From Sipunculus nudus (taxonomy: Eukaryota > Annelida > Sipuncula > Golfingiida > Sipunculidae): DNA of 64,000 bases. Position 1 is the stretch's first letter; every line of letters starts with the position of its first letter. The stretch covers positions 24,441,729-24,505,728 of the forward strand of contig CM049314.1 of NCBI GenBank assembly GCA_026874595.1, read 5' to 3'. Below the pieces are notes generated by a model, which made no database searches, was not told the origin of the DNA, and saw only the letters and a program-made list of their open reading frames with translations. The position numbers were made by a program, and so were the translations under genes. Below, piece by piece: positions 3,516 through 59,186 of the stretch.

Positions 3516-4995
3516 CTCTGAATAAGGGCCTTGCGCGGGCTGAAAAATTGAACCGCCCAGCATTATGCCTTGTCAGCCCGCAGCCCGCCCCGCAATCAAA
3601 GAAATAAATTCAGCCCGCTCCGCCCCGCAGTTACTATGATTCTTTCAGCCCGCACCCGCCCCGCGAAATTTTCTTTCAGCCCGCACCCGCCCCGCCCCGC
3701 ATTTTTTAAGTTTCTTGCCCGCAGTCCAGCCCGCAAAATAATTAAAATAGTTTTCGGATCAAAAGGTTTACCTATCAAGATATTTTACAGCACATATATA
3801 AGACACGCTTATTATTAATATATATGAAATGTTTGTTGTTTGGAAAGAAAAATTTATTTGAATACGTTTTTGCAATAATTCAAACCATAATTCATGAAAT
3901 AAAATAATGTTTGATTGGTTAGATGGATTTAATTTATAGATAATAATTTAACACACCTTAAACATGTTTTCATATTTTACAAGGGAAATAAACAAACCTT
4001 TGGTTAATTGTGTCTGTTTCTACTTAAATATATATAAAAAATTAGACTTCTTCAAAGTATTTGTACCCAAAGTGACCCTTTAGAATAGTATTGGCTAATC
4101 ACAAGCCATCAAACTAACGATATGTGTTGCTGGTTAAAGTTTTTCAGTCACAGTCTGCTAATTAGCTGAAACAGGCAGGTCAAGGGGTAATCTGACTGAT
4201 ATGGCTTTCGGATCAGGATGTTCATTGAGATCTAGACATGGCTAGAGCCTTTTTTCTTATAGCAATCATCAACACATTATGCTGTGACCAAACAGTGATT
4301 TGACCAGCCAGTGGTCAATGTCATTTACAATTAGACAGCGCATGTAGTTACAATTAGATAATCAGTCCACCTTAGGCGTTGTGCAGTTCCAAGTCAATTG
4401 AGTCACCTACAGAGCCAGCTGTAGCCACACACTGTCTATTACAAGATCAAAGATAATCAAGCCCTTGCTTCAGACCCAGCCATATTATGTAATATGTGGG
4501 ACCTGACACAAGTAAAGGTTTACAGTCCATATACAACATCAGGCCAGGTAACTTTATACAAAGTTATGACGAGCTCCCATTGCAAAGACAATTGTTTAAG
4601 GTCTAGATTTCAGATTAAGGATGCATCATCTATTTTGTATAACAAATCGATGTTATACCTAGAAAAGACACGTTTGCATAGTGTTGTTACAACTGTCAGT
4701 CAGTGTAAGGGTTTAACAGGAATAATTTTTTTTCAAATTTACGAAACCTGAAAACATTTTATACAAAATACCAATTTCTTCAAATGATATTTTTTTAAAG
4801 TATAATTTCATATTCATGTTTTACTGAACTGCCAGAACATCAACCCGCAGCCCGGCCCGCCCCGCACATACATAAGTTTTGCCCGCCCCGCCGCGCACTT
4901 TCATGAAGTAGCCCGCCCCGCCCCGCAAATATTCCTATGCGGGGGCCCGCGGGCTGCGGGTCAAAACCCGCCCCGCGCAGGGCCCTACTCTGAAT
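3516..4995 (+). mobile_element. Complete hAT-type non-autonomous transposon with 8-bp TSD
   Basis: The eight bases CTCTGAAT occur immediately outside both ends (3516-3523 and 4988-4995), the target-site duplication length of hAT transposons. The element itself spans 3524-4987 (1,464 bp). Its ends are imperfect inverted repeats: left AAGGGCCTTGCGCGGG, right (reverse complement) TAGGGCCCTGCGCGGG. Inside each end lies a GC-rich block of CCCGCCCCGC-type units (about 3555-3735 and 4845-4985). These blocks are in the same orientation at both ends rather than inverted. The middle is AT-rich and has no recognisable transposase, so the element would need an enzyme supplied in trans. A second, window-edge copy is at 1-427. 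Confidence 0.85.
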
Positions 4996-5629
4996 ACAAG
5001 CATTAACATTAAAATGGTGAAATCATAAGGAATATTAAGTTATTAATCATTATTTTTAGAATAACTGAATTCTGTAAAGGTAGTTAATGTATTTTTAATC
5101 AGTTTAGGTGCCTAGCTTTATCGTTTGCACTATTTTCGTATAATCCTGACAATAACGAATTGCGACAAGATAAATCGAACGCGCTTCATATGCAGCTGTT
5201 TCAACATTTGCAGAATCTGTTTATCTGAAATTGATAATCTGTTTGAATATTTCTTGCCAACCAATGCTATTTATAACCTGTTCAGTTTTGAACTGATCTG
5301 GTAGCATATTACTGGTACCTATCTTCGACACTCGGCATTGGAATATCGAGTCTTGATTAAGAAGGATTTTAGTAAATTCATTATTTGGAAGCAAATCCTT
5401 GTTTGGTCTGCAGAGATAAGATTTTAACCATAAACGCTTTTCCCACCTTTTATATCTGAAAATATTGTGTTAGCCTTATCTTAATAGATGATGGATCAAC
5501 AGCGTGCAGTGCACGTGTTACTGGAATGAATTGTTAAAAATCTTAAAAAAAGAAGGATTTGTGGGATATTTCGATACAAGGGTTATCGATGACAAGAAGT
5601 GGTTCGATTGTAAATAGGTTTTATAAGAA

Positions 5630-5634
<5 letters not shown>
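4996..5634. other. Non-coding stretch, nothing recognised
   Basis: AT-rich DNA with no open frame of note and no repeat structure recognised. Confidence 0.45.

Positions 5635-5670
<36 letters not shown>
5635..5670. repeat. (TA)n microsatellite left of the ribozyme palindrome
   Basis: About 36 bases of TA. A matching tract follows the palindrome at 5902-5937. Confidence 0.95.
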
Positions 5671-5674
<4 letters not shown>

Positions 5675-5760
5675 GGTAGTGTTACCCTCCGATGTAAAGT
5701 GCTCTATGGCCTACAAGCTAGGCCAGAGCGGTATAACTCTGAAGAAAAACAACACTGTTA

Positions 5761-5808
5761 ATTCACAACAGACTGTTTCACGGGATGCGACCCGATCATC
5801 AGGTGAAT
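5761..5808 (-). ncRNA. Type I hammerhead ribozyme, minus-strand copy
   Basis: Because the palindrome is perfect, the minus strand of the left arm reads the same 48-nt hammerhead as 5829-5876 on the plus strand. Predicted cleavage falls between 5767 and 5766. A transcript from either strand would contain one sense ribozyme and one antisense copy that could pair with it and hide it. Confidence 0.65.
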
Positions 5809-5828
5809 GTGGTTAGAATTCTAACCAC

Positions 5829-5876
5829 ATTCACCTGATGATCGGGTCGCATCCCGTGAAACAGTCTGTTGTGAAT
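5829..5876 (+). ncRNA. Type I hammerhead ribozyme, plus-strand copy
   Basis: All core parts are in order. Stem I 5' strand is ATTCAC (5829-5834). Core CTGATGA is at 5835-5841. Stem II is CGGG/CCCG (5843-5846 with 5853-5856) with loop TCGCAT. Core GAA is at 5858-5860. A 3-bp stem III ACA/TGT (5861-5863 with 5867-5869) is closed by GTC. The cleavage base is T at 5870, and the stem I 3' strand GTGAAT (5871-5876) pairs perfectly with ATTCAC. Self-cleavage is predicted after 5870. Oddities are a U-U mismatch at the base of stem II and a GUU rather than GUC or GUA cleavage triplet. The very short stem III resembles retroelement hammerheads, which often work as dimers. Confidence 0.7.
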
Positions 5877-5900
5877 TAACAGTGTTGTTTTTCTTCAGAG

Positions 5901-5937
<37 letters not shown>

Positions 5938-5938
<1 letters not shown>

Positions 5939-7100
5939 CATATACTAGAATTTCTAATTAATGATTTTATGTATTACCGATATGCAAGGGATATTGCACA
6001 ATATACTTCGTCATCAGAAGTGTCACTGTGAACTTCTTGTTGAGTTGTGTTGCTCCATTATCATTTTAAAGAGTATTCATATATTGATGTGTTCCTCTTT
6101 TAGAAAAAGCTATTGTTTCAGACTTCATGTGAAACAAATGATCATACCTTCAAAACAAATTCCGTTTATGATAATGTGATCTCAGTAATCTTTGCCCCTA
6201 ATGCATTTGACTCTGTTTCCCTTAACATACAAATTATGTGCGACTAAATACTAGCAAAGATAAAATTCCAATGTAACAAAACCAGGCCATTATATATGTG
6301 CATGGTGGACTCTTCATCACGGCTCATTCGATTTCTGTATGTTCCCTTTTAATTTAAACAGGGCCTAAACCAAGTCGCGTTCTAGACCGGTATTTTTTTC
6401 CAATTAAGAAACAGCATCCAGTCCACCCTCACTTGATCTCAGATTTTCTCCTTAATATAAGCAGAGGCCAAATATGGTCTCTCGGTTTTAAATTTCCTAA
6501 TAGAAACAGAACGGATATATTGTAATTCGATTTTTGTATTTTTTAACTTTTTGATGGTAGCGGTACGATATATTGAAGAAATGCATTAATAAAAGTCAAT
6601 TGTCACGGCTATATTTGCCAAAATTATCAAGAAATGATCACAACTGTTGTGGCATGTTTCATAGGTTTCGTCAATTCGATGACAAATTCATGTTTGTGAT
6701 GAGGCTCTCTGTTATGATAAAGATGTTTTATTAGAGTCACCACGTGAACAATCGTGTATGTGTGACTATTTGTGTGCGTGTAATAATACTTTAAAAACGG
6801 AAACATCTATAGTCAGTACCACGGTGTGGCACCCATTGAAATTTGGGGATTATTCTTTGAAAATCAATAATTATAGTCTGACCTTAAAACTTATGAAAAC
6901 ACATGCACTTGGCAGAAAGTGAGGCTGTCGTTTCAGCATATCTTATCGTTAATCAAACTGATTTCCCTTATTTTGAGTGCCTATTTACAAAATAATGAGG
7001 AGATCAACTCACAAACGTTTAGAATACAACTTTTCATACATCGTAGTGTTCCGCTTCCACTGTTACCCATATACAGGACTCTAGGGGACGGCGCACTCGT

Positions 7101-13103: not shown

Positions 13104-15893
13104 CTACCCTTCCCCCACTTTCTCTAGTGGGGTGATAATACTGGGTTTCCGTCTGCCACTGATCTTTTGCCAGTCGAGCCACATTTTGAGGTCTTTATAA
13201 AACTTCTCTTGCTTCACCTTTTCGACATAGCCTTTGCTCAACCTTAGTATGTGGTCGCTCACATACTCTATATCTGCCTTCTCGTGAAGCACAGATATCC
13301 GCGTGCGGGGCGGGAGTCTCAAGGCCGTCCTTAAGGCTCTGTTTTGAAGCCGTTGAAGTTTTTTAATGTGGTGCTCTTTGGCGGTGATCAGGGCTATGCA
13401 GCCGTATGTCATAACCGGTCTGATCCAGGCTTTATAAAGGTATATCAAACTTTGGGTAGACATGCCTCCTGATCCTGCTTTTAGCACTCTTAAGCAGTTG
13501 AGTCTCGCTTTGACCCTCTGTTCGATATCCTCTATATGAGCCGCCCATGTGAGTCTCTTATCAACCGTCAGACCCAGAAATTTTATCTGGTCTGTGAATT
13601 GAATTGGTTCCCCGGCCAATTTCAGTTCTGGCGCTTTGCCGGCCTTACTGCCTTTCAGGTGCCTACCGAATTTGCAAGCCTGCGTTTTTGTCGCATTGAC
13701 TCTTACTCGCCATTTGGCGCACCACTTTGTCACCTCGTCTAGACCGGCCTGTAACCTGGGTACTGCCCTCTTGCTATGTGTCCATAGCGCAGTGTCGTCC
13801 GCAAATTGGCTCGTCGCCCCCGTGCGGACCCCTCCTTTCTCGGACAGGCTAGGCATGTCGTTGACGAATATGACATAGAGCAGCGGGCTGAGAGCTGAGC
13901 CCTGCGGTGTGCCTGCGGCGGGTTCGATCTCATGCGACTTAGCGTCACCTACTCTGACCCATAGCTTCCTGTCACTTAGGAAGGACGAGAGGAGCCTCAC
14001 AATGCGAGTCGGTAGTTTTGCCTGCGTTGCGATCTTATACCTTAGACCATCCCGCCATACTGCGTCGAAGGCTTTCTCGACGTCTAGGAATACACCTATA
14101 GTATCATTAGATCGCTGCAGGCATTGTCCCACCGACTGAGTCAACCTGAACAGTTGGTCATTTGTCGACCTGCCCTTACGGAACCCGCTCTGATTCGGGT
14201 TAAAGAATTTTGCTTCCTCCAAGTGACCACTGATCCTGCCAGCCAGTATTCGTTCCAGCACTTTGCCCAGAATTGGCAGTAGGCTGATGGGTCGGTAGCT
14301 TTTCGGCAGCGAGTGATCCTTTCCCGGCTTCGGGATCATGATCACGTTCGCTCTTTTCCATGCCCTTGGGAAGTACCCCAGTTTCAGACACGCGTTGAAC
14401 ACAGATGTGAGCGCTTCCAGCCCTTCCTCCGGTAGGTTAATCAGCACTTCCCTGGTGAGGCCGTCCTCCCCCGGGGCTTTTCTGCTTTTGAGTTTTTTCA
14501 GCTTCCTGCTGACTTCCGCTTTTGAGATCGCTCTCAGTAGCGGCTCGTCCTCTGCTGTCTGAGCGTAGCAGCTCTCTACCCTTGCCAGAGGCGAGTATAA
14601 CTCGTTTGCACCTTGTCTTACGTGCCGATCAACCTCCTCCTGTGTTTGGTCGTCGAACTGGGGTCCCGTCGGGACCTTGTGTATGTTCCGGAGCGTCTCC
14701 GCGAACAAATTTGCCTTGTCCTTTTCCGTACTAGCCACCGTTCCCATCGGGCCTGTGAGGTCTGTAGTTCCGACCGATGGTTTGTTCATCGAGCCCGTGT
14801 ATTGGCGGACCTTTCGCCAAAATTCGCCCACTGATATTCTGTGGTCCATACCGCTCGTGAACTTGTACCATTCCGCCTTTTTCTGGGCTTTTATTGCATT
14901 TTTCACCTCCCAACTAATAGCATTGTATTGGGATTTTAACTCCTCTGTTCGGAGTTGGATCTGAAGCCTTCTGATCCTCCTTCTTTCCCTTACAAGTGCT
15001 TTAATCGTTGGGGTGAATGACCACCAGTTACGGTTTTTCCTTTCCACCATCGGACACGCTCGGTCCAGGCAATCTCGCATTTCAGAGGTCAGTTTGTCGA
15101 CTAGGGTGTCGATTCCTTCTGGGGTCGATGGTTCAGCGATACCTCGGAGCCTGTCTGCCAATTCATTTTTAAAGAGCCTCCAGTTTGCCTTTCTCCAAGG
15201 CCTCACCATTTTGGGTGGCTTTCTGTTCGCTCTCCAATCGAGCTCTAAATGAATTGGCATGTGATCGCTGCCTATATCTTCCCCTACATGAAATTTACTG
15301 ACCAGTCCTACCTCGGGCGATACGATTGCCAGATCGAGTATGTTCGTTCCACCGGTCGTGGGGTTCACCCTGGTCGGGCTCCCATCGTTCATTATCACCA
15401 TACCGTACCGATCTATGCAATCCATCAGTGCTTTCCCGTTCAGATTAGAGGATCTGCTGCCATACGAGGTGTGTGGGGCATTTAGGTCCCCTAACACCAC
15501 GTAGTGGCTGCTGTTCCTCTTAATCTTGTCAAAGAGTTGTGCCCTGGGCCGTGACTGTGGCGGGTTGTAATATACTATTACATCGATTGTCGGGTCGCCG
15601 CTGTGGACAGGTTCAACTCTAACCGTTAGAGCTTCTATGTCCATCCTTCCTAGCCAGTTTGTTTGGCGGTATACTAGGTTCTCTTTGATCAAGAGAGCCA
15701 CTCCGCCTCCCATATTACCGTCTGGCCGTCCCCTGTGTAGCAGGTTATAGCCGGTGAAGGAAACGTTTCTGGTCAGCTTAGACTCGCTGATAGCCATGAT
15801 ATCTACGGAATGCCTGTGGATATAGTTGAGTATCTCTAACCTCCTTCCATACAGGCCATTCACGTTTGCGTGGCATAGTTTGAGCTTAACCAT
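13104..15893 (-). CDS. Retrotransposon ORF2: endonuclease-reverse transcriptase
   Basis: I start at the ATG at 15893-15891 (929 residues). The frame is open 43 codons further back to 16022, but those residues lie inside ORF1 and do not look like endonuclease. The N-terminal apurinic-type endonuclease shows CHANVNGL, then ISESKL (catalytic Glu), LGDLNAPH (Asp/Asn) and SDHMPI (Asp/His). The reverse transcriptase shows APGEDGL, IPKPGKD, YRPISLLP, SGFRKGRST, FLDVEKAFD (first catalytic Asp), GTPQGSALSPLL and FADD (catalytic Asp pair). A C-terminal thumb-like tail includes WIRPVMTYGC and LQRLQNRALR. It would nick target DNA and prime reverse transcription in the nucleus. The length is normal for Jockey-type ORF2 and no inactivating change is visible. 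Confidence 0.92.
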   Translation of the reverse strand: MVKLKLCHANVNGLYGRRLEILNYIHRHSVDIMAISESKLTRNVSFTGYNLLHRGRPDGNMGGGVALLIKENLVYRQTNWLGRMDIEALTVRVEPVHSGDPTIDVIVYYNPPQSRPRAQLFDKIKRNSSHYVVLGDLNAPHTSYGSRSSNLNGKALMDCIDRYGMVIMNDGSPTRVNPTTGGTNILDLAIVSPEVGLVSKFHVGEDIGSDHMPIHLELDWRANRKPPKMVRPWRKANWRLFKNELADRLRGIAEPSTPEGIDTLVDKLTSEMRDCLDRACPMVERKNRNWWSFTPTIKALVRERRRIRRLQIQLRTEELKSQYNAISWEVKNAIKAQKKAEWYKFTSGMDHRISVGEFWRKVRQYTGSMNKPSVGTTDLTGPMGTVASTEKDKANLFAETLRNIHKVPTGPQFDDQTQEEVDRHVRQGANELYSPLARVESCYAQTAEDEPLLRAISKAEVSRKLKKLKSRKAPGEDGLTREVLINLPEEGLEALTSVFNACLKLGYFPRAWKRANVIMIPKPGKDHSLPKSYRPISLLPILGKVLERILAGRISGHLEEAKFFNPNQSGFRKGRSTNDQLFRLTQSVGQCLQRSNDTIGVFLDVEKAFDAVWRDGLRYKIATQAKLPTRIVRLLSSFLSDRKLWVRVGDAKSHEIEPAAGTPQGSALSPLLYVIFVNDMPSLSEKGGVRTGATSQFADDTALWTHSKRAVPRLQAGLDEVTKWCAKWRVRVNATKTQACKFGRHLKGSKAGKAPELKLAGEPIQFTDQIKFLGLTVDKRLTWAAHIEDIEQRVKARLNCLRVLKAGSGGMSTQSLIYLYKAWIRPVMTYGCIALITAKEHHIKKLQRLQNRALRTALRLPPRTRISVLHEKADIEYVSDHILRLSKGYVEKVKQEKFYKDLKMWLDWQKISGRRKPSIITPLEKVGEG

Positions 15894-17916
15894 GACGTCC
15901 CCCCACCGACTTCTTAAAACCGTTGCTACCGGCCTTTTTGGATTTGGGCTGCCTATAGCTGCCCTTATCCTTTTTGGATGATGCGTTACTGGCTGATACC
16001 GATCGAGCTCTCGGCTCCTCACGGTCCTTTTCCGTTCCTCTGTCCGACAGCGCCGTCCACGACAATTCTAGGCCTAGGTGCCTAGTAGCCGACTTCTTCA
16101 CCACTGTTACGGCCCGTTCTCTGGGCTCATTGACTTTCGCCAGCTTCAGCGTTTCTGTGATCACTTCACAGAGAAACTTTATCAGTTTCTCTGGGTTGAT
16201 CTCTAGCATAGCCTGGCTTTCAGCCACGGCTTGCTCCTCCGCCGGAGCTACCCCCTTTTCCGTTACATTGCGGTTTTTGGCCGCGGCCCGCCCTCCGGCA
16301 AGCCTGGTGGACGTGCTACCGCTAGCCACGACCTGCCCCCTTTCGGGAGCGGGAGCCTTCTGGGTCCTTACAGCCTCTGAGGCCGTGGGTCCCCGGGAGC
16401 CTCTGGTGATTTTGGCGTAGGTCACGCCAGTCTGGTGGGCTTTACCTTTCCTGCCTTCCGCGCTCTTGCTGGTCGGCTTCCCTTCAGTGCCGTGTTTAGC
16501 CGTTGTCGGCCTCTGCCGGGCACCTTTGAAGGCTGTACAGCCCCTGTACATCGCCCTGTGGTCGCCCCCGCAGTTTGCACATTTTGGCTTGCTCTTGTCG
16601 GCTGCCCTTCGACAATCTTTGGCATAGTGGCCTGCCTCGCCACAGTGCCTGCACCTGCCAGCCTTAGTGCATACTTTGACCGTGTGCCCGAACTGGTAGC
16701 AGTTCAGGCACTGGATCGGCTCTACTGCCTTCCGGAAAGCCTCGCAGCGTATACGCTCGCTCCCGTACCTGAACCCGTGCTCGAGTGCCCTCGTAGCGCT
16801 CTCGCTCTGCTGAAAGTGCACGAGCACCTTCCACACCGGCTTTTTTCCGTGCCTGAGCCGCACGACCTCTTTGGCTTTTAAGCCCTGTTCATTTAACTCC
16901 GCCATGATCTCTTCTGTTGAGATATGCGGGCTCATTCCTCTGGCCACCACCGATGTTTGTTGGGTGCCCTCTGGTTTGGCTTGCTTGCTGCCCCGTGCAA
17001 GCTCCACCACTACCTTGGGCCCCGCCTTGATCAGTGGGCGCCAGTCGGGCCTGGCTTCCCTTGCTGTTTCGGGGAGCGTGACCACCATTACTCCCCTGTC
17101 GAACTTTGTCTTACAGGCGGAGGTGCCCGTGCACTCCGTCACCAGCCTGTTCATTTTTCTACTGTTCTGCCTGAGGGCCGCCGGTAAGCCCCTGACCCAG
17201 TACCGAGCCAAGCCCTCTTTCTCCTGGTCAGCCACCTTACCTTCCGGCTGGCCGTTCTCCGTGCTCCCTGTCCGTACAGGCGAGCTTCGGGTCGGAGTTC
17301 CGTCCGCTGCTTGATTAACCCAGGTCCCCGGTTTGGTGGGCGACCCGCTATCACCTGAGCGGACTGGATTAGAGGGCGTCGATCTCTCGATCGAGCTCGG
17401 GGACAGTGTCCTGAGAACCGTCGGCCACTCAGGCGATCCCACGTCTATGATTGGAGACCCCGACCGTTCGGGCGTCCCCGCCTTGTCCGGCCCCGGGACC
17501 TCCGGGGTGACCACTCCCGGGGTCTGCGGGGTTACCACTACCCTGTATGACTCGTTGCCCCTCTCCGGGGAGTCATCGAATAGCTCGAAACTGGCGTCCC
17601 CTGTCGGGGTGGCCGGTACCGAGCTCGGGGAACCCAGCGTAGAGCTTGGCGAGTTCGATGTCCCTTGCATCGCTCCCTCGCCTGCTGGGCTCTGTGAGGC
17701 CGAACCCTTGTTCGCGCCTCGACCCTCCATCTCGGTCCGCACGTCCGCCGCCTGCGCTCTACCGATGCTCTCCGTGATGAGCCCCGTAATCATCTGGAGG
17801 GCGTCAGGCCCGTGCCTTGCTGCCTGCTGCAGCCCACCTGTGATCTGGGTGAGACCCGGGATCACTTCTCTTTCCCTCTGAGAAAGCACCAACAGCCTGG
17901 TAAGTGCTTCCGCCAT
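15886..17916 (-). CDS. Retrotransposon ORF1: zinc-knuckle RNA-binding protein
   Basis: 676 residues from the ATG at 17916, which has A at -3 and G at +4. Residues about 70-230 are Ser/Thr/Pro/Gly-rich and probably disordered. About 320-398 looks like the RRM-like region found before the knuckles of Jockey/I ORF1 proteins. Three knuckles follow: CLNCYQFGHTVKVC (403-416), CRHCGEAGHYAKDC (422-435) and CANCGGDHRAMYRGC (446-460). The rest is basic and Lys/Ala-rich. The family role is to bind the element RNA and form the RNP that ORF2 protein joins. The stop TAA overlaps the ORF2 start in the sequence ATGGTTAA, suggesting coupled translation. Confidence 0.9.
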   Translation of the reverse strand: MAEALTRLLVLSQREREVIPGLTQITGGLQQAARHGPDALQMITGLITESIGRAQAADVRTEMEGRGANKGSASQSPAGEGAMQGTSNSPSSTLGSPSSVPATPTGDASFELFDDSPERGNESYRVVVTPQTPGVVTPEVPGPDKAGTPERSGSPIIDVGSPEWPTVLRTLSPSSIERSTPSNPVRSGDSGSPTKPGTWVNQAADGTPTRSSPVRTGSTENGQPEGKVADQEKEGLARYWVRGLPAALRQNSRKMNRLVTECTGTSACKTKFDRGVMVVTLPETAREARPDWRPLIKAGPKVVVELARGSKQAKPEGTQQTSVVARGMSPHISTEEIMAELNEQGLKAKEVVRLRHGKKPVWKVLVHFQQSESATRALEHGFRYGSERIRCEAFRKAVEPIQCLNCYQFGHTVKVCTKAGRCRHCGEAGHYAKDCRRAADKSKPKCANCGGDHRAMYRGCTAFKGARQRPTTAKHGTEGKPTSKSAEGRKGKAHQTGVTYAKITRGSRGPTASEAVRTQKAPAPERGQVVASGSTSTRLAGGRAAAKNRNVTEKGVAPAEEQAVAESQAMLEINPEKLIKFLCEVITETLKLAKVNEPRERAVTVVKKSATRHLGLELSWTALSDRGTEKDREEPRARSVSASNASSKKDKGSYRQPKSKKAGSNGFKKSVGGRHG

Positions 17917-18100
17917 TCTTTTATTCAGTGCCCTCTCACTGAATTGTCTAGATATACTCCCGCTCGGGCAGTATGTTGGTTTCCCGACCTTTCTCGATAT
18001 ATTCCTTTTGGGAATATATCGGGCTTTTCCTCTCGCCCTTTTTGACCTCGCTCTTCTGTCGGGTCTTATTATTTTATTCCCGTTCGGGCAATAAAATAAT
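17917..18100 (-). promoter_or_regulatory. Three consecutive stem-loops in the retrotransposon 5' leader
   Basis: Just upstream of the ORF1 start lie three hairpins. Stem 1 is ATACTCCCG/CGGGCAGTAT (about 17953-17974). Stem 2 is CGATATATTCC/GGAATATATCG (17995-18021). Stem 3 is ATTATTTTATTCCCG/CGGGCAATAAAATAAT (18068-18100) with one bulged base. Stems 1 and 3 share the core TCCCG-2 nt-CGGGCA; stem 2 has only TTCC/GGAA. The arms of each stem are complementary to each other although their sequences differ, which suggests preserved pairing. A role in translation initiation or RNP recognition is inference. Confidence 0.6.
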
Positions 18101-18990
18101 TTTGGATTTTCTCTCCGCCTCCTGCCTCTATTTTCGCCCCGATTGCTCGTACCTGTTCAGGCTACGATTTCTCTTTTCAGTAGATTGGTTGTTTCCAGAG
18201 CGTGGAAGACAACTTATCTTCAGATGATCCGTGAGCCAGCGAGCCGAGAGCGGGCTCTATTCAGCAGTTTTTGCCCAGAGCCGGGCTTAAAACTGTGAGC
18301 TTTGTGGACGGTCGGGCCGAGAGCTAGCCCTTGAGCCGAGAGCAGGCTCAATGAATGAGTTAATTAACTGTACCGAGAGCGGGTATCTGTTAATTAGTTC
18401 TTTGTAGGTTTCCCCTACCCCGGAGCCAACAAGAAAATTCGAAAAAGTGATACTTTACCTGATTCCCCTAAAGTAACCTTAACTTATAGAACTAAGCCCT
18501 AGCTAAGATGCACTTGTTTGGGGATGGCAGTACTGAAAAGCTGAAAAGCTGAAAAAAGATAGACTAGTCCTAAAGAGGACTGTTGTGGGTGGCTCCTATC
18601 ACCAGTCTCGCTAATCACTAATGTGAATAGCTTGACTGGGAAGTTAGGCGCCAGTGAGTCTGCTGTGTCTCCGCGTCTCTGTCCACTTGACTAATTAGGC
18701 GGTGGTGGTCTAATTAGAGTTGCTCCCAGGCACGTCCGTTCTCCACGGCTGCTGGGACCGCAATGCTGGGACACTCTCTGCGCGCGCTCTACTTATATGC
18801 TAAAGGCGGACGGTGACCGTCCGAGGGGTATCCGCATGATCAGCCCTGCACGGGTGGTTATCGTCCAGCGCTACATCGCTGTTACAAGCCAGCGGACAAA
18901 CCCCGCTTACGTAAGTGAGATACGCAGCTAACCTGATAACCTGCAGTGTGACTGACCCCCATGGAACCATGCATTCACTACACCTGTAAG
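18101..18990 (-). promoter_or_regulatory. Retrotransposon 5' leader and possible promoter
   Basis: A GC-rich leader with degenerate repeats of CCGAGAGCGGG (about 18240-18390). On the minus strand GCATATAAGTAG at about 18790-18801 is a TATA-like word, followed by GCGCGCGCAGAGAGTGTCCC. It is not clear whether transcription starts here or further in. No coding frame of note exists. Confidence 0.4.
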
Positions 18991-21489: not shown

Positions 21490-22930
21490 ACGTGTGTATT
21501 TTGCATTATTTCTAGGGTGCTCAAACATTCCCCAAAACTCTGAGAATATAGTTCACTGTGACCAAATTTCAGGTTTCTGGGGAGAACTTTTGAGGAACTC
21601 TCAGGATGTCAAGTGAGAAGATTCTGGGCCCAAAGGATATGATTTGTGCCCTACTTTGGTATCAAATTTTCAATTATTCTGAGGGGTGCTTATATTTATA
21701 AGCCCCATAGCTCAGAAAATATGGGTAACAGAGACCTAAATACACGTTTCAACGGAGATTTTCATAGACCTCCCTGGATTTTAGGTTAGAAGATTTAAGG
21801 TCCAATGTATATGATTTGTGCCCTGCTTTGGTATCAAATTTTTAATTATGATGGGCGGTGCCATAAGCCCAATAGCTCAGAGAATATTGGTAACAGAGAC
21901 CTAATTTCAGGTTTCCATGGAGACTTTTCATGTACCTCTCTGGATGTAAAGTGAGAAGATTCTATGTCTAATTGTTACGATTTGAGCCCTATTAACAGAT
22001 GACCAAATCTTTTAAGGTCTCAAAAATAGATAAACGAAAAAATACAGGTGGCGCCACCAGTCTGCAGAAATTGATAAAACACTCCATGATTAATATCCAT
22101 GCAAAGAATCATGGTGATCAATGCATTAGTTGTTCAAATAGTTGAGCTTTTGTATCAAATTTTTCATTATCCTGGGGGGGGGGGGGTACTTCGGAGCCCC
22201 ATAGCTGGAAGAATTTGGGTAACAGAGACCTAATTGCAGGTTTCCATGGAGACTTTTCATATACCTCTCTGGATGTAAAGTGAGAAGATTCTAAGTCTAG
22301 CGGTTACGATTTGTGCCCTGTTAACAGTTGACCACATCTTTTAAGGTTTCAAAATAGAGAAAAAATAATTGTTAAAAAATAAAAAAAAATACAGGTGGCG
22401 CCACTAGTCTGCAGAAACTGATGAAACACTCCATGATTAATATCCATGCAAAGAATCATGGTGATCAATGCATTAGTTGTTCAGATACGTGAGCTTTTGT
22501 ATCAAATTTTTCATTATTCTGGGGGGGGGGGGGTACTTCGGAGCCCCATAGCTTGAAGAATTTGGGTACCAGGGACCTAATTCCAGTTTTTCAAAGGAGA
22601 TTTTTCATGGACCTATCTGGATGTGAAGTTAGAAGATTCCAGGTCCAGTGTTTACGATTTGTGCCCTTTTAACAGATGACGGCATCTTTTAAGGTCTCTA
22701 AATAGAGAGAAAAAAATTGTTAAAAAATCGAAAAAATCCAGGTGACACCACCAGTCTGCAGAAACTGATGAAATACTAATTAACAAATTTTTCATTATTC
22801 TGGGGGGGGGGGGGGTACTTCGGAGCAACATAGCTTGAAGAATATGGGTAACAGACACCTAATTCCAGGTTTCCAAGAAGACTTCTCATGGACCTCTCTG
22901 GATGTAAAGTGAGAAGATTCCAGTTCCAGT
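21490..22930 (+). repeat. Degenerate tandem repeat, ~330-bp units
   Basis: The line GGATGTAAAGTGAGAAGATT and its variants recur at about 21605, 21780, 21943, 22272, 22620 and 22901. Between the later ones lie copies of CAGGTGGCGCCACCAGTCTG, TCCATGATTAATATCCATGC, TTTTTCATTATTCTG, a G run and GGTACTTCGGAGCCCCATAG. Spacings for the last four are 329, 348 and 281. A related single unit is at 43130-43440, so the family is dispersed as well as tandem. No protein is encoded. Confidence 0.8.
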
Positions 22931-29935: not shown

Positions 29936-31849
29936 CTACACGAACAGCTCCAGCTGAGGGAGATCCTTACTGAGCTGTCGTCTGATCCTGTCTATCACGT
30001 GACCAGACAGATTGTTGTTGTTCAGCCACAGCTTCCTGAGTCCCGCCATGTTTGGTGTCAGGTTGACGATTTCCTCCAGTCCGTCACCGAGGTTATTGCC
30101 GCCCACATAGAACTTTGTGAGAGTCTGACAGTTCTTTATAATCTCCAGGACGGCCCCGGCGTCACTAAGATTACACACCTCCATCCCGATGACGTGAAGC
30201 TGTTTTAGGTGAGAGACGCGCCGTGATAACTGTCTTGTACTCTCGTCTGTCATCTTATTCTCAGACACGTCAAGCCACATCAGGGACTGAGGCAGAGACG
30301 CCATCAGTGACGGCCAGGGGGCGCCACGTACATCCCGTCCAACAGCGTTCCACAGGTCCAGTGTTGTCAGTTGAATGTTGCTCGTCGTGAGGATGTGACT
30401 GAGCGTCCCCAGACCGGACACTGACAGGGAGAGACGCCCAAACCTTAACTCTGTGAGACGAGACATGTTACATACAGATGGCAGGACAGCTCTGTCTGTG
30501 ACGGACGTGTAACCCCAGGCGGCCTCCACAGTGAGGTGAGTGACACAGCCACAGTCACCAGACATGTATTGTATGTACACCGCCTCCCTGTATCTGTCAC
30601 TGATCTCTAAGTACACACGAGACGGAAGCTTCAGCTGAGCGTTCATGTTTTGAGCCTGGTTACTGAGCTGTAATGCAGGAATTATTTTAGCCAGATCTCC
30701 TTGAGGCCATTGAACTAACTTGCGTATTTCATCCATTATCGCCTCCCCGCCAAAACCATTCATAAACGTGTATATCATTTCTGACTCAACAAAAGCATTA
30801 ACAGAACCATAAAACTTAATTAATAATTTCTTTCGCTTCCACCAGAAAGAATTAACAATGAAGTATGCAGTAAAAAATTCCTGCATTGTTTTATGAGGGA
30901 AGGCAACCATCTCCCCACCCTCCATGTTGCTCTCCCTCTTACTCAGGAAGCCCAGCAACCAGGCTTTTTCTCCAATTTTCTTGAACACTTCTTTATACAG
31001 AAATGTCAGCTGTAGCTTACCATCCTCAACTCCACTGACACTGACCTTACCAATTTTCATTAAACAAGAATGATATTTTTTAATAATATTCCCAGATTTT
31101 GTGGGTTTATCATATTTTGATTCATACCGGTCACAGATATATTCCACAAATTTCAGAAAAAATCCAGTAATTGTATCAGGGAGAGAAGTCTCGTGTGCCC
31201 AGAGAGTGCACATCAGTAATAAGATAGCAGGGAAGCGGCTCAGATCTGTCAGCTCCCCCAATTCTTTAATTCTACCCAAAAGACTATCAGACTTAGATTG
31301 ATCTATATGTTCAAAATAGTTATGTATGTACTGGGAGACACCTTAAGAACTAAATCCTTTCACCAACACATGATTATCTGGCAAGTATGCTCTGTCCTTT
31401 ACATTAGGGAAATGGAAAGAAGGTGGATGTCTAGATGTTATTAATAGAGTGGCCTCTCTGAGTATTTTTCTCTGTGCTATGTTTGTAATATCTTTGGAGG
31501 TGGACTCTAGATACTCATCATAGCCTTCTAAGACTATGAGTGTGTCTTTAGAGAATTGTGACATCCTACTGTACAACAGACTGGCTGTTCCAAGTTCTAT
31601 GCAATATTGATGCTGTATGACATCCTGTAGTTTCATTCCTTTCTTAACATATCTTAAAATTATAAGGAGAACATACTTAAATTTAGAAAATACAGTTTCC
31701 TCTTGTTCAGATATCTGGACATTCTTTTTCAGCCATCTTCTTTGAACCAGCTTACACCACTTCATTGCCAGTTTCTGAACTAGGGTTGATTTGCCAGAGC
31801 CAGCCGCACCCTGCAGAAACACAAAGGTAGCTGCTCTTTCTTCAGATAC
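29936..31849 (-). CDS. NLR exon 5: NACHT and LRR, interrupted by TAA at 31345-31343
   Basis: The acceptor is TTTCTTCTACATAG before GTATCTGAAG (31849). The frame runs VSEERAATFVFLQGAAGSGKS, through the nucleotide-binding core, to GFSS at residue 343. A TAA stop follows, and GVSQYIHNYFEHID continues in the same frame with no shift. The segment after the stop is typical of the post-NACHT helical region and is well conserved in style: LSRFPAILLLMCTLW, FPHKTMQEFFTAYF. LRR-like lines such as LRKLWLNNNNLSG follow, up to the natural stop at 29936. Since nothing else in 638 codons is damaged, the stop is either recent, a sequence error, or tolerated. A product ending there would keep CARD and most of NACHT but lose the LRR sensor. 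Confidence 0.85.
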
Positions 31850-58431: not shown

Positions 58432-58765
58432 AGGCGAAATTAGAATCCAGGCGGATTTAAAATCCGCCTAGGCGAGATTGAAATTCTGATTTCGCCTAGG
58501 CGAATTAAAATTTCAATATCGCCTAGGCGGATTTAAAATCTGCCTAGGCGAGATTAAAATCCTGTTATGATTATATGTAGGATTTCATTCTCGCCTAGGC
58601 GGATTTAAAATCTTCCTATGCGAGATTGAAATTTTGATTCCGCCTAGGCGAGATTAAAATCATGTTATGATAAATGTAGGATTTCATTCTCGCCTAGTCA
58701 GATTTAAAATTTGCCTAGGCGAGATTTAAATTTTGATTTCGCCTAGGCCATATTAAAATCCTAGC
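58432..58765. repeat. Array of CGCCTAGGCG palindromes
   Basis: Ten sites of the palindrome GCCTAGGC are centred on CCTAGG at 58467, 58495, 58522, 58543, 58594, 58615 (degenerate), 58643, 58693 (degenerate), 58714 and 58742. The spacings are 28, 27, 21, 51, 21, 28, 50, 21 and 28, so most of the array has a three-site unit of 21+28+50 (about 99 bp). Between the sites lie AT-rich spacers GATTTAAAATC and GATTGAAATTCTGATT that are near-palindromic themselves. A weaker trace is at 58890-58970. There is no open frame and no known family. Confidence 0.85.
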
Positions 58766-58981: not shown

Positions 58982-59026
<45 letters not shown>

Positions 59027-59124
59027 AGAGAAAGAGAGGGGGAACTAGAATACACAGAAAGGTCGGTTCACTGCCGATGGGAAATATCGGCAGTGATCCG
59101 ACTTTTATGTGTATTCTAGTTCCA

Positions 59125-59186
<62 letters not shown>

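What the first reader, a model, noticed from the sequence alone, without database searches (positions are those of the whole stretch)
5732..5905. Perfect 174-bp palindrome that encodes a hammerhead ribozyme on each strand
The two 87-bp arms are exact reverse complements with no spacer. Each arm holds every part of a type I hammerhead: 6-bp stem I (ATTCAC/GTGAAT), CTGATGA, a CGGG/CCCG stem II, GAA, a 3-bp stem III and an NUH cleavage site (T at 5870). Hammerheads occur in Penelope-like elements and retrozymes of bivalves, but a spacerless head-to-head pair means any full transcript carries sense and antisense ribozymes. The RNA could switch between one long hairpin and two active cleavers. Both sides are (TA)n, so this may be a head-to-head joined retroelement terminus. 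The GUU triplet, the U-U pair at stem II and the tiny stem III may make it slow or dimer-dependent.
Basis: partly seen in the sequence, partly recalled or inferred. Interest (0 to 1): 0.88.

Follow-up and report, generated by a model that had tools for sequence, protein, structure and literature searches.

The report
Head-to-head pair of ribozyme-bearing retroelement ends
A short jumping-element fragment that carries a self-cutting RNA motif seems to have been copied into a TA repeat twice, nose to nose, giving a perfect palindrome; it looks like a known insertion style of Penelope-like elements rather than a new ribozyme device.

Summary
The palindrome is real: 5732-5905, two 87-bp arms, 100% complementary, no spacer. 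Each strand holds one type I hammerhead motif with an intact core; cleavage is predicted after 5870 (+) and 5767 (-). These are the only descriptor matches in the window; strict settings matched 0 of 150 shuffles. Rfam listed no hammerhead family. The left arm continues for 60 non-palindromic bases (5672-5731) forming two hairpins, strongest on the ribozyme-sense strand (z -3.95); both ends meet (TA)n. Inverted ends, an optional tail on one, palindromic junctions and AT-rich targets are published anatomy of Penelope-like elements (PLEs). Best reading: an ORF-less insertion of a hammerhead-bearing element, PLE-type or retrozyme-like, made by reverse transcription from both target strands. Membership is unproven: no relative was found, and the genome search did not complete.

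The parts
5634..5671 (.). Left (TA)19 repeat, taken as one side of the target site (or a repeat tail)
   Evidence: Tandem Repeats Finder; sequence
5672..5731 (-). 60-nt non-palindromic tail on the left copy only; two hairpins on the - strand, 5729-5701 and 5689-5672 (ACAC loop, ending at the border with (TA)n)
   Evidence: Sequence; fold -23.8 kcal/mol, z -3.95, 0 of 200 shuffles as stable; + strand z -2.11, 7 of 200
5732..5818 (-). Left arm of the palindrome (ribozyme sense on - strand)
   Evidence: 100% complementary to 5819-5905
5761..5808 (-). Hammerhead motif on the - strand, predicted cleavage after 5767
   Evidence: Descriptor hit
5819..5905 (+). Right arm of the palindrome (ribozyme sense on + strand); its last four bases TATA are shared with the TA repeat
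5829..5876 (+). Hammerhead motif on the + strand, predicted cleavage after 5870
   Evidence: Descriptor hit; no Rfam hammerhead listed
5902..5937 (.). Right (TA)18 repeat, other side of the presumed target site
   Evidence: Tandem Repeats Finder

Best explanation
One recent, ORF-less insertion, head to head, of two copies of the terminal region of a hammerhead-bearing retroelement into a (TA)n repeat. One copy is 147 nt (87-nt arm plus 60-nt tail), the other is the 87-nt arm alone. Inferred mechanism: a PLE-type reverse transcriptase with endonuclease cut both strands of the TA repeat and primed reverse transcription from both, once at an outer start (end of the ACAC-loop hairpin, 5672) and once at an inner start (TATA, about 5732). 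Both cDNAs stopped at the same RNA position and were joined there, giving the spacerless palindrome. The RNA had not been cut by its own ribozyme, since sequence on both sides of the predicted cut is present. Consequence: on either strand the antisense arm is transcribed before the ribozyme, so a transcript should fold into a long hairpin and cleavage should be blocked; if transcribed, it would be a double-stranded RNA source rather than a self-cleaver. Shown: palindrome, both motifs, tail, TA junctions, computed folds. Inferred: the enzyme, double priming, the join, the fate of the RNA.
For: Perfect arms; one hammerhead per strand, above chance; asymmetric ends: tail on one copy only, both ends in (TA)n; tail hairpins strongest on the ribozyme-sense strand. 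Published PLE anatomy: inverted pseudo-LTR, optional 31-bp tail on one inverted copy, palindromes at junctions, head-to-head commonest, AT-rich targets. Purified anole PLE protein cuts and extends both target strands, starts at internal sites including an AC-rich stem loop, and uses uncleaved RNA (20, 21). Distance from ribozyme cut to outer end is 95 nt here and 82-89 nt to the main start in the anole element. Hairpin blocks ribozyme: -159.0 against -7.5 kcal/mol and nascent-length models for the + strand.
Against: No relative found: no second copy in the window, 0 pattern hits to the ribozyme or tail. No sequence similarity to the anole element beyond 7-8-nt matches, and no ORF: the ATG in the core opens only 13 codons. 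The tail is 60 nt, not 30-40. The anole enzyme prefers ATT, which (TA)n lacks. PLE hammerheads are described as lacking helix III (33), while this one has a possible 3-bp stem. A target-site duplication cannot be measured inside (TA)n. The authors of PMC3846280 favour self-priming on an antisense template over double priming.
Confidence: 0.55

Rival explanations
1. DNA-level fold-back: a single element copy already lay in the (TA)n; during repair or replication the polymerase switched to the opposite strand, copied 87 nt back and rejoined the TA repeat through the shared TATA.
For: TATA (4 nt) at the right junction is shared by element and TA repeat (1); TA repeats are known fragile, cruciform-forming sites (recalled); one event explains a perfect palindrome.
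Against: Does not by itself explain why such a fold-back should look like the published PLE arrangement with a tail on one copy (30, 43).
Confidence: 0.2
2. Palindrome made by self-priming of an antisense PLE RNA rather than by priming from both target strands (the model of PMC3846280).
For: Favoured by those authors for head-to-head palindromes (32).
Against: Copying back would be expected to include the tail; here it stops at the inner TATA (inference from 1). Both-strand priming has since been seen in vitro for a PLE (20).
Confidence: 0.1
3. Assembly or library artefact (fold-back chimaera).
For: Perfect spacerless palindromes are a classic artefact (recalled); no reads were available.
Against: The palindrome ends at different element positions on the two sides and both ends run into (TA)n and then different flanks (1, 17), so two false joins are needed.
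Confidence: 0.08
4. The motif is a chance or decayed look-alike with no ribozyme ancestry, and the palindrome is a fold-back DNA element (MITE).
For: No Rfam hammerhead listed; the 48-nt motif folds better another way (-11.3 against -6.9) and no better than shuffles (z -0.67). Another imperfect hairpin element lies between simple repeats at 58982-59182.
Against: Core and three helices all present, 0 of 150 shuffles at strict settings. A clear hammerhead in a viral contig reached only 23 bits against a cut-off of 56.3, so Rfam silence is weak evidence. The two outer ends differ, unlike terminal inverted repeats.
Confidence: 0.05

Closest known systems
Endonuclease-containing Penelope-like elements (Pen2a_Av and relatives of Adineta vaga, PMC3846280; Poseidon of Anolis, PMC11167929)
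   Same: Inverted ends, optional tail on one copy, palindromic junctions, AT-rich target; hammerhead upstream of internal RT start sites in the anole element
   Different: No ORF here, no sequence similarity to the anole element, 60-nt tail instead of 30-40, much longer palindrome, (TA)n instead of ATT
Metazoan non-LTR retrozymes (PMC7229834)
   Same: Small, non-coding, type I hammerhead, low GC, weak stem III; U-U at the base of stem II as in axolotl HHR_Amex2
   Different: Retrozymes are described as tandem repeats of about 150-450 bp; here two head-to-head pieces of 147 and 87 nt, no tandem copy in the window
LINE twin-priming inversions (recalled)
   Same: Second cDNA primed from the other target strand at an internal microhomology
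   Different: Usual twin priming does not duplicate the sequence; here both copies share 87 nt

Membership tests
Type I hammerhead ribozyme | Conserved core CUGANGA ... GAA ... A-U pair ... NUH | tested here: met
   All present on both strands
Type I hammerhead ribozyme | Standard closing pair at the base of stem II | tested here: not met
   U-U at 5842/5857; the same mismatch is tolerated in axolotl HHR_Amex2
Type I hammerhead ribozyme | Match to a curated Rfam hammerhead model | tested here: not met
   None listed; a control hammerhead also stays below threshold
Type I hammerhead ribozyme | Self-cleavage | not testable with these tools
   Energies suggest a weak monomer
Penelope-like element | ORF with RT and GIY-YIG domains | tested here: not met
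   Not within 5672-5905: the ATG frame has 13 codons. Six window ORFs scanned with Pfam show a LINE RT but no GIY-YIG; the rest of the window was not scanned
Penelope-like element | Inverted terminal copies with palindromic junction and optional tail on one | tested here: met
   tail 60 nt instead of 31
Penelope-like element | Sequence relationship to a PLE family | tested here: inconclusive
   Only 7-8-nt matches to one anole element; no PLE of this genome could be searched
Metazoan retrozyme | Tandem repeats each with a type I hammerhead | tested here: not met
   No tandem or other copy in the window; other loci of the genome not searchable
Metazoan retrozyme | Circular RNA intermediate | not testable with these tools
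   No RNA data
MITE / fold-back DNA transposon | Matching terminal inverted repeats at both outer ends | tested here: not met
   Outer ends differ: tail on the left, arm end on the right, unless the tail is unrelated DNA

The most novel reading that the evidence does not exclude
A non-coding hammerhead element with no PLE ORF was inserted with the PLE signature (both target strands primed, tail on one copy, head-to-head join). This would be genomic evidence that PLE enzymes move retrozymes in trans, using RNA that its own ribozyme had not cut.
Probability: 0.3. Interest if true: 0.55.

Novelty: new member of a known kind. Interest (0 to 1): 0.38.

Why it matters
PLEs are the published candidate for moving animal retrozymes, but the step is unproven. 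A locus that combines a hammerhead, a short non-coding unit and PLE-like insertion anatomy makes that link testable by counting such junctions across a genome. It also shows that a head-to-head arrangement places each ribozyme behind its own antisense, so such pairs should not cleave and should form double-stranded RNA.

Tried and rejected
Rfam microRNA, snoRNA and UTR matches on the palindrome (for example MIR1861, 59.7 bits against a cut-off of 88) are all below their cut-offs and reflect the long hairpin or the TA repeats. Exact-pattern scans of viral contigs for ribozyme and tail gave 0 hits in three scans; a looser fourth gave one viral-contig hammerhead, used as a control only. One genome-contig scan gave 0 hits. 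Reading GAATTC at the centre as proof that two cDNAs annealed was dropped, because the centre of any perfect palindrome is self-complementary. The tandem repeat at 22034-22777 holds CTGATGA and was considered as a retrozyme; the descriptor finds nothing there. Two papers on PLE hammerheads were not held.

Full report
Observation. The window is eukaryotic DNA: it holds a LINE (RVT_1 and Exo_endo_phos matches in 13104-16064, a gag-like frame at 15886-18153) and a NACHT frame at 31343-31846 with a sub-threshold LRR match in the neighbouring frame. I take it for an animal by inference; the bivalve idea was not tested. At 5732-5905 lies a perfect spacerless palindrome with 87-nt arms. With 0 mismatches in 87 positions the 95% upper bound on arm divergence is 3.4%, so it is recent or kept identical by conversion.

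Ribozyme. Each strand carries one type I hammerhead motif with every core position present; predicted cleavage is after 5870 (+) and 5767 (-). Only these two mirror sites match a descriptor in 64 kb. Two strict settings gave 0 hits in 150 dinucleotide shuffles; the loosest gave hits in 9 of 150. Against this, Rfam listed no hammerhead family at gathering threshold for the window or up to E = 10 for 5600-6000 and for one arm. One control: a well-folded hammerhead in a viral contig (-30.6 kcal/mol) reached only 23 bits against a cut-off of 56.3. The base of stem II is U-U, as in axolotl HHR_Amex2, which cleaved 22% in an hour (PMC7229834, text parts 1-3 of 6 read). By nearest-neighbour energies the hammerhead is not the best fold of the 48-nt motif (-6.9 against -11.3), and the motif folds no better than its shuffles (z -0.67, 43 of 200 as stable). 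ACAGUCUGU in stem III is self-complementary at 8 of 9 positions; a dimer hammerhead evaluates to -26.3, against -29.5 for the best co-fold and -13.8 for two monomer hammerheads. A weak, possibly dimer-dependent ribozyme is the fair summary.

Transcripts. On both strands the antisense arm is made first. The whole palindrome folds at -159.0 kcal/mol and the single right arm at -19.0, while the hammerhead structure in that arm is -7.5. For + strand transcripts starting at 5672 and ending at seven points from 5850 to 5937, the tested long-hairpin pair has probability 0.9999 in 7 of 7; the tested pair of ribozyme stem II has about 2e-22 or less in the six where it could form. The - strand was not modelled; the palindrome makes it the mirror case. 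These are equilibrium energies without tertiary contacts.

Anatomy beyond the palindrome. The left copy continues for 60 nt (5672-5731) to the (TA)19 repeat; the right copy ends at TATA in the (TA)18 repeat. The tail folds into two hairpins, better on the ribozyme-sense strand (z -3.95, 0 of 200 shuffles as stable) than on the other (z -2.11, 7 of 200). The outer hairpin has an ACAC loop and ends at the border. Distances from the ribozyme cut are 35 nt to the inner border and 95 nt to the outer; by my count it is 82-89 nt to the main RT start in the anole PLE. That element shows only 7-8-nt matches to this one, and the ATG in the core here opens only 13 codons.

Comparison with print. In PMC3846280 (passages, sections 6 and 11 read) the typical Penelope insertion has two direct pseudo-LTRs around the ORF and an inverted one, with an optional 31-bp tail on one of the inverted copies; in the example the inverted copy is 37 bp shorter. 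Palindromes of 18 and 38 bp sit at pseudo-LTR 5' ends, head-to-head is called the most frequent inverted order, and simple AT-rich targets are preferred. The authors favour self-priming on an antisense template. In PMC11167929 (text parts 1-3 of 4 read) the purified anole protein cuts and extends both target strands, starts at two internal sites that explain the tail, mostly in an AC-rich stem loop, prefers ATT, and does not need ribozyme cleavage. The locus fits this set except for the tail length, the longer palindrome, the TA target and the missing ORF. PMC7761336 (passages) names PLEs and Terminons as likely movers of retrozymes, and describes PLE hammerheads as lacking helix III, whereas a 3-bp stem III is possible here. 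In the listings (several cut to the top 10-25 papers) I noticed no title or abstract start describing a head-to-head hammerhead pair; that is no proof of absence.

Mechanism. I favour reverse transcription primed from both strands of a cut TA repeat on RNA not cut by its ribozyme, with both cDNAs ending at one RNA position and joined there. Self-priming on an antisense RNA and a DNA-level fold-back of one existing copy are the main rivals, and a single locus cannot exclude them. An artefact would need two false joins.

Limits. No relative of the element was found: no second copy in the window, no collection hit to the ribozyme or tail patterns, and the source genome could not be searched. Membership in PLEs or retrozymes is therefore open. 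The finding is a neat new instance of what looks like a known insertion type, with modest interest for the question of which enzyme moves retrozymes.

Noticed in passing
58982-59182: A second hairpin element, arms 77% complementary with 7 nt between, core GGAACTAGAATACACA...TGTGTATTCTAGTTCC, lying between (TA)n and (CT)n repeats; no hammerhead.
   Followed up: partly
58449-58760: Tandem repeats built from GCCTAGGCGAGATT-type units with local inverted symmetry.
   Followed up: no
22034-22777: 347-bp tandem repeat, 2.1 copies, with poly-G runs and a CTGATGA but no hammerhead by the descriptor.
   Followed up: partly
13104-18156 (-): LINE with a gag-like frame and an endonuclease/reverse transcriptase frame of 987 residues without stops.
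   Followed up: partly
29936-31849 (-): NACHT domain frame with a neighbouring LRR-like frame, an NLR-like gene.
   Followed up: partly
4849-4931: GC-rich 31-bp minisatellite, 2.7 copies.
   Followed up: no
L001:6682-6744 (+): Hammerhead resembling RAGATH-1 in a 100-kb viral contig; folds as a hammerhead but scores 23 bits against Rfam's cut-off of 56.3.
   Followed up: partly
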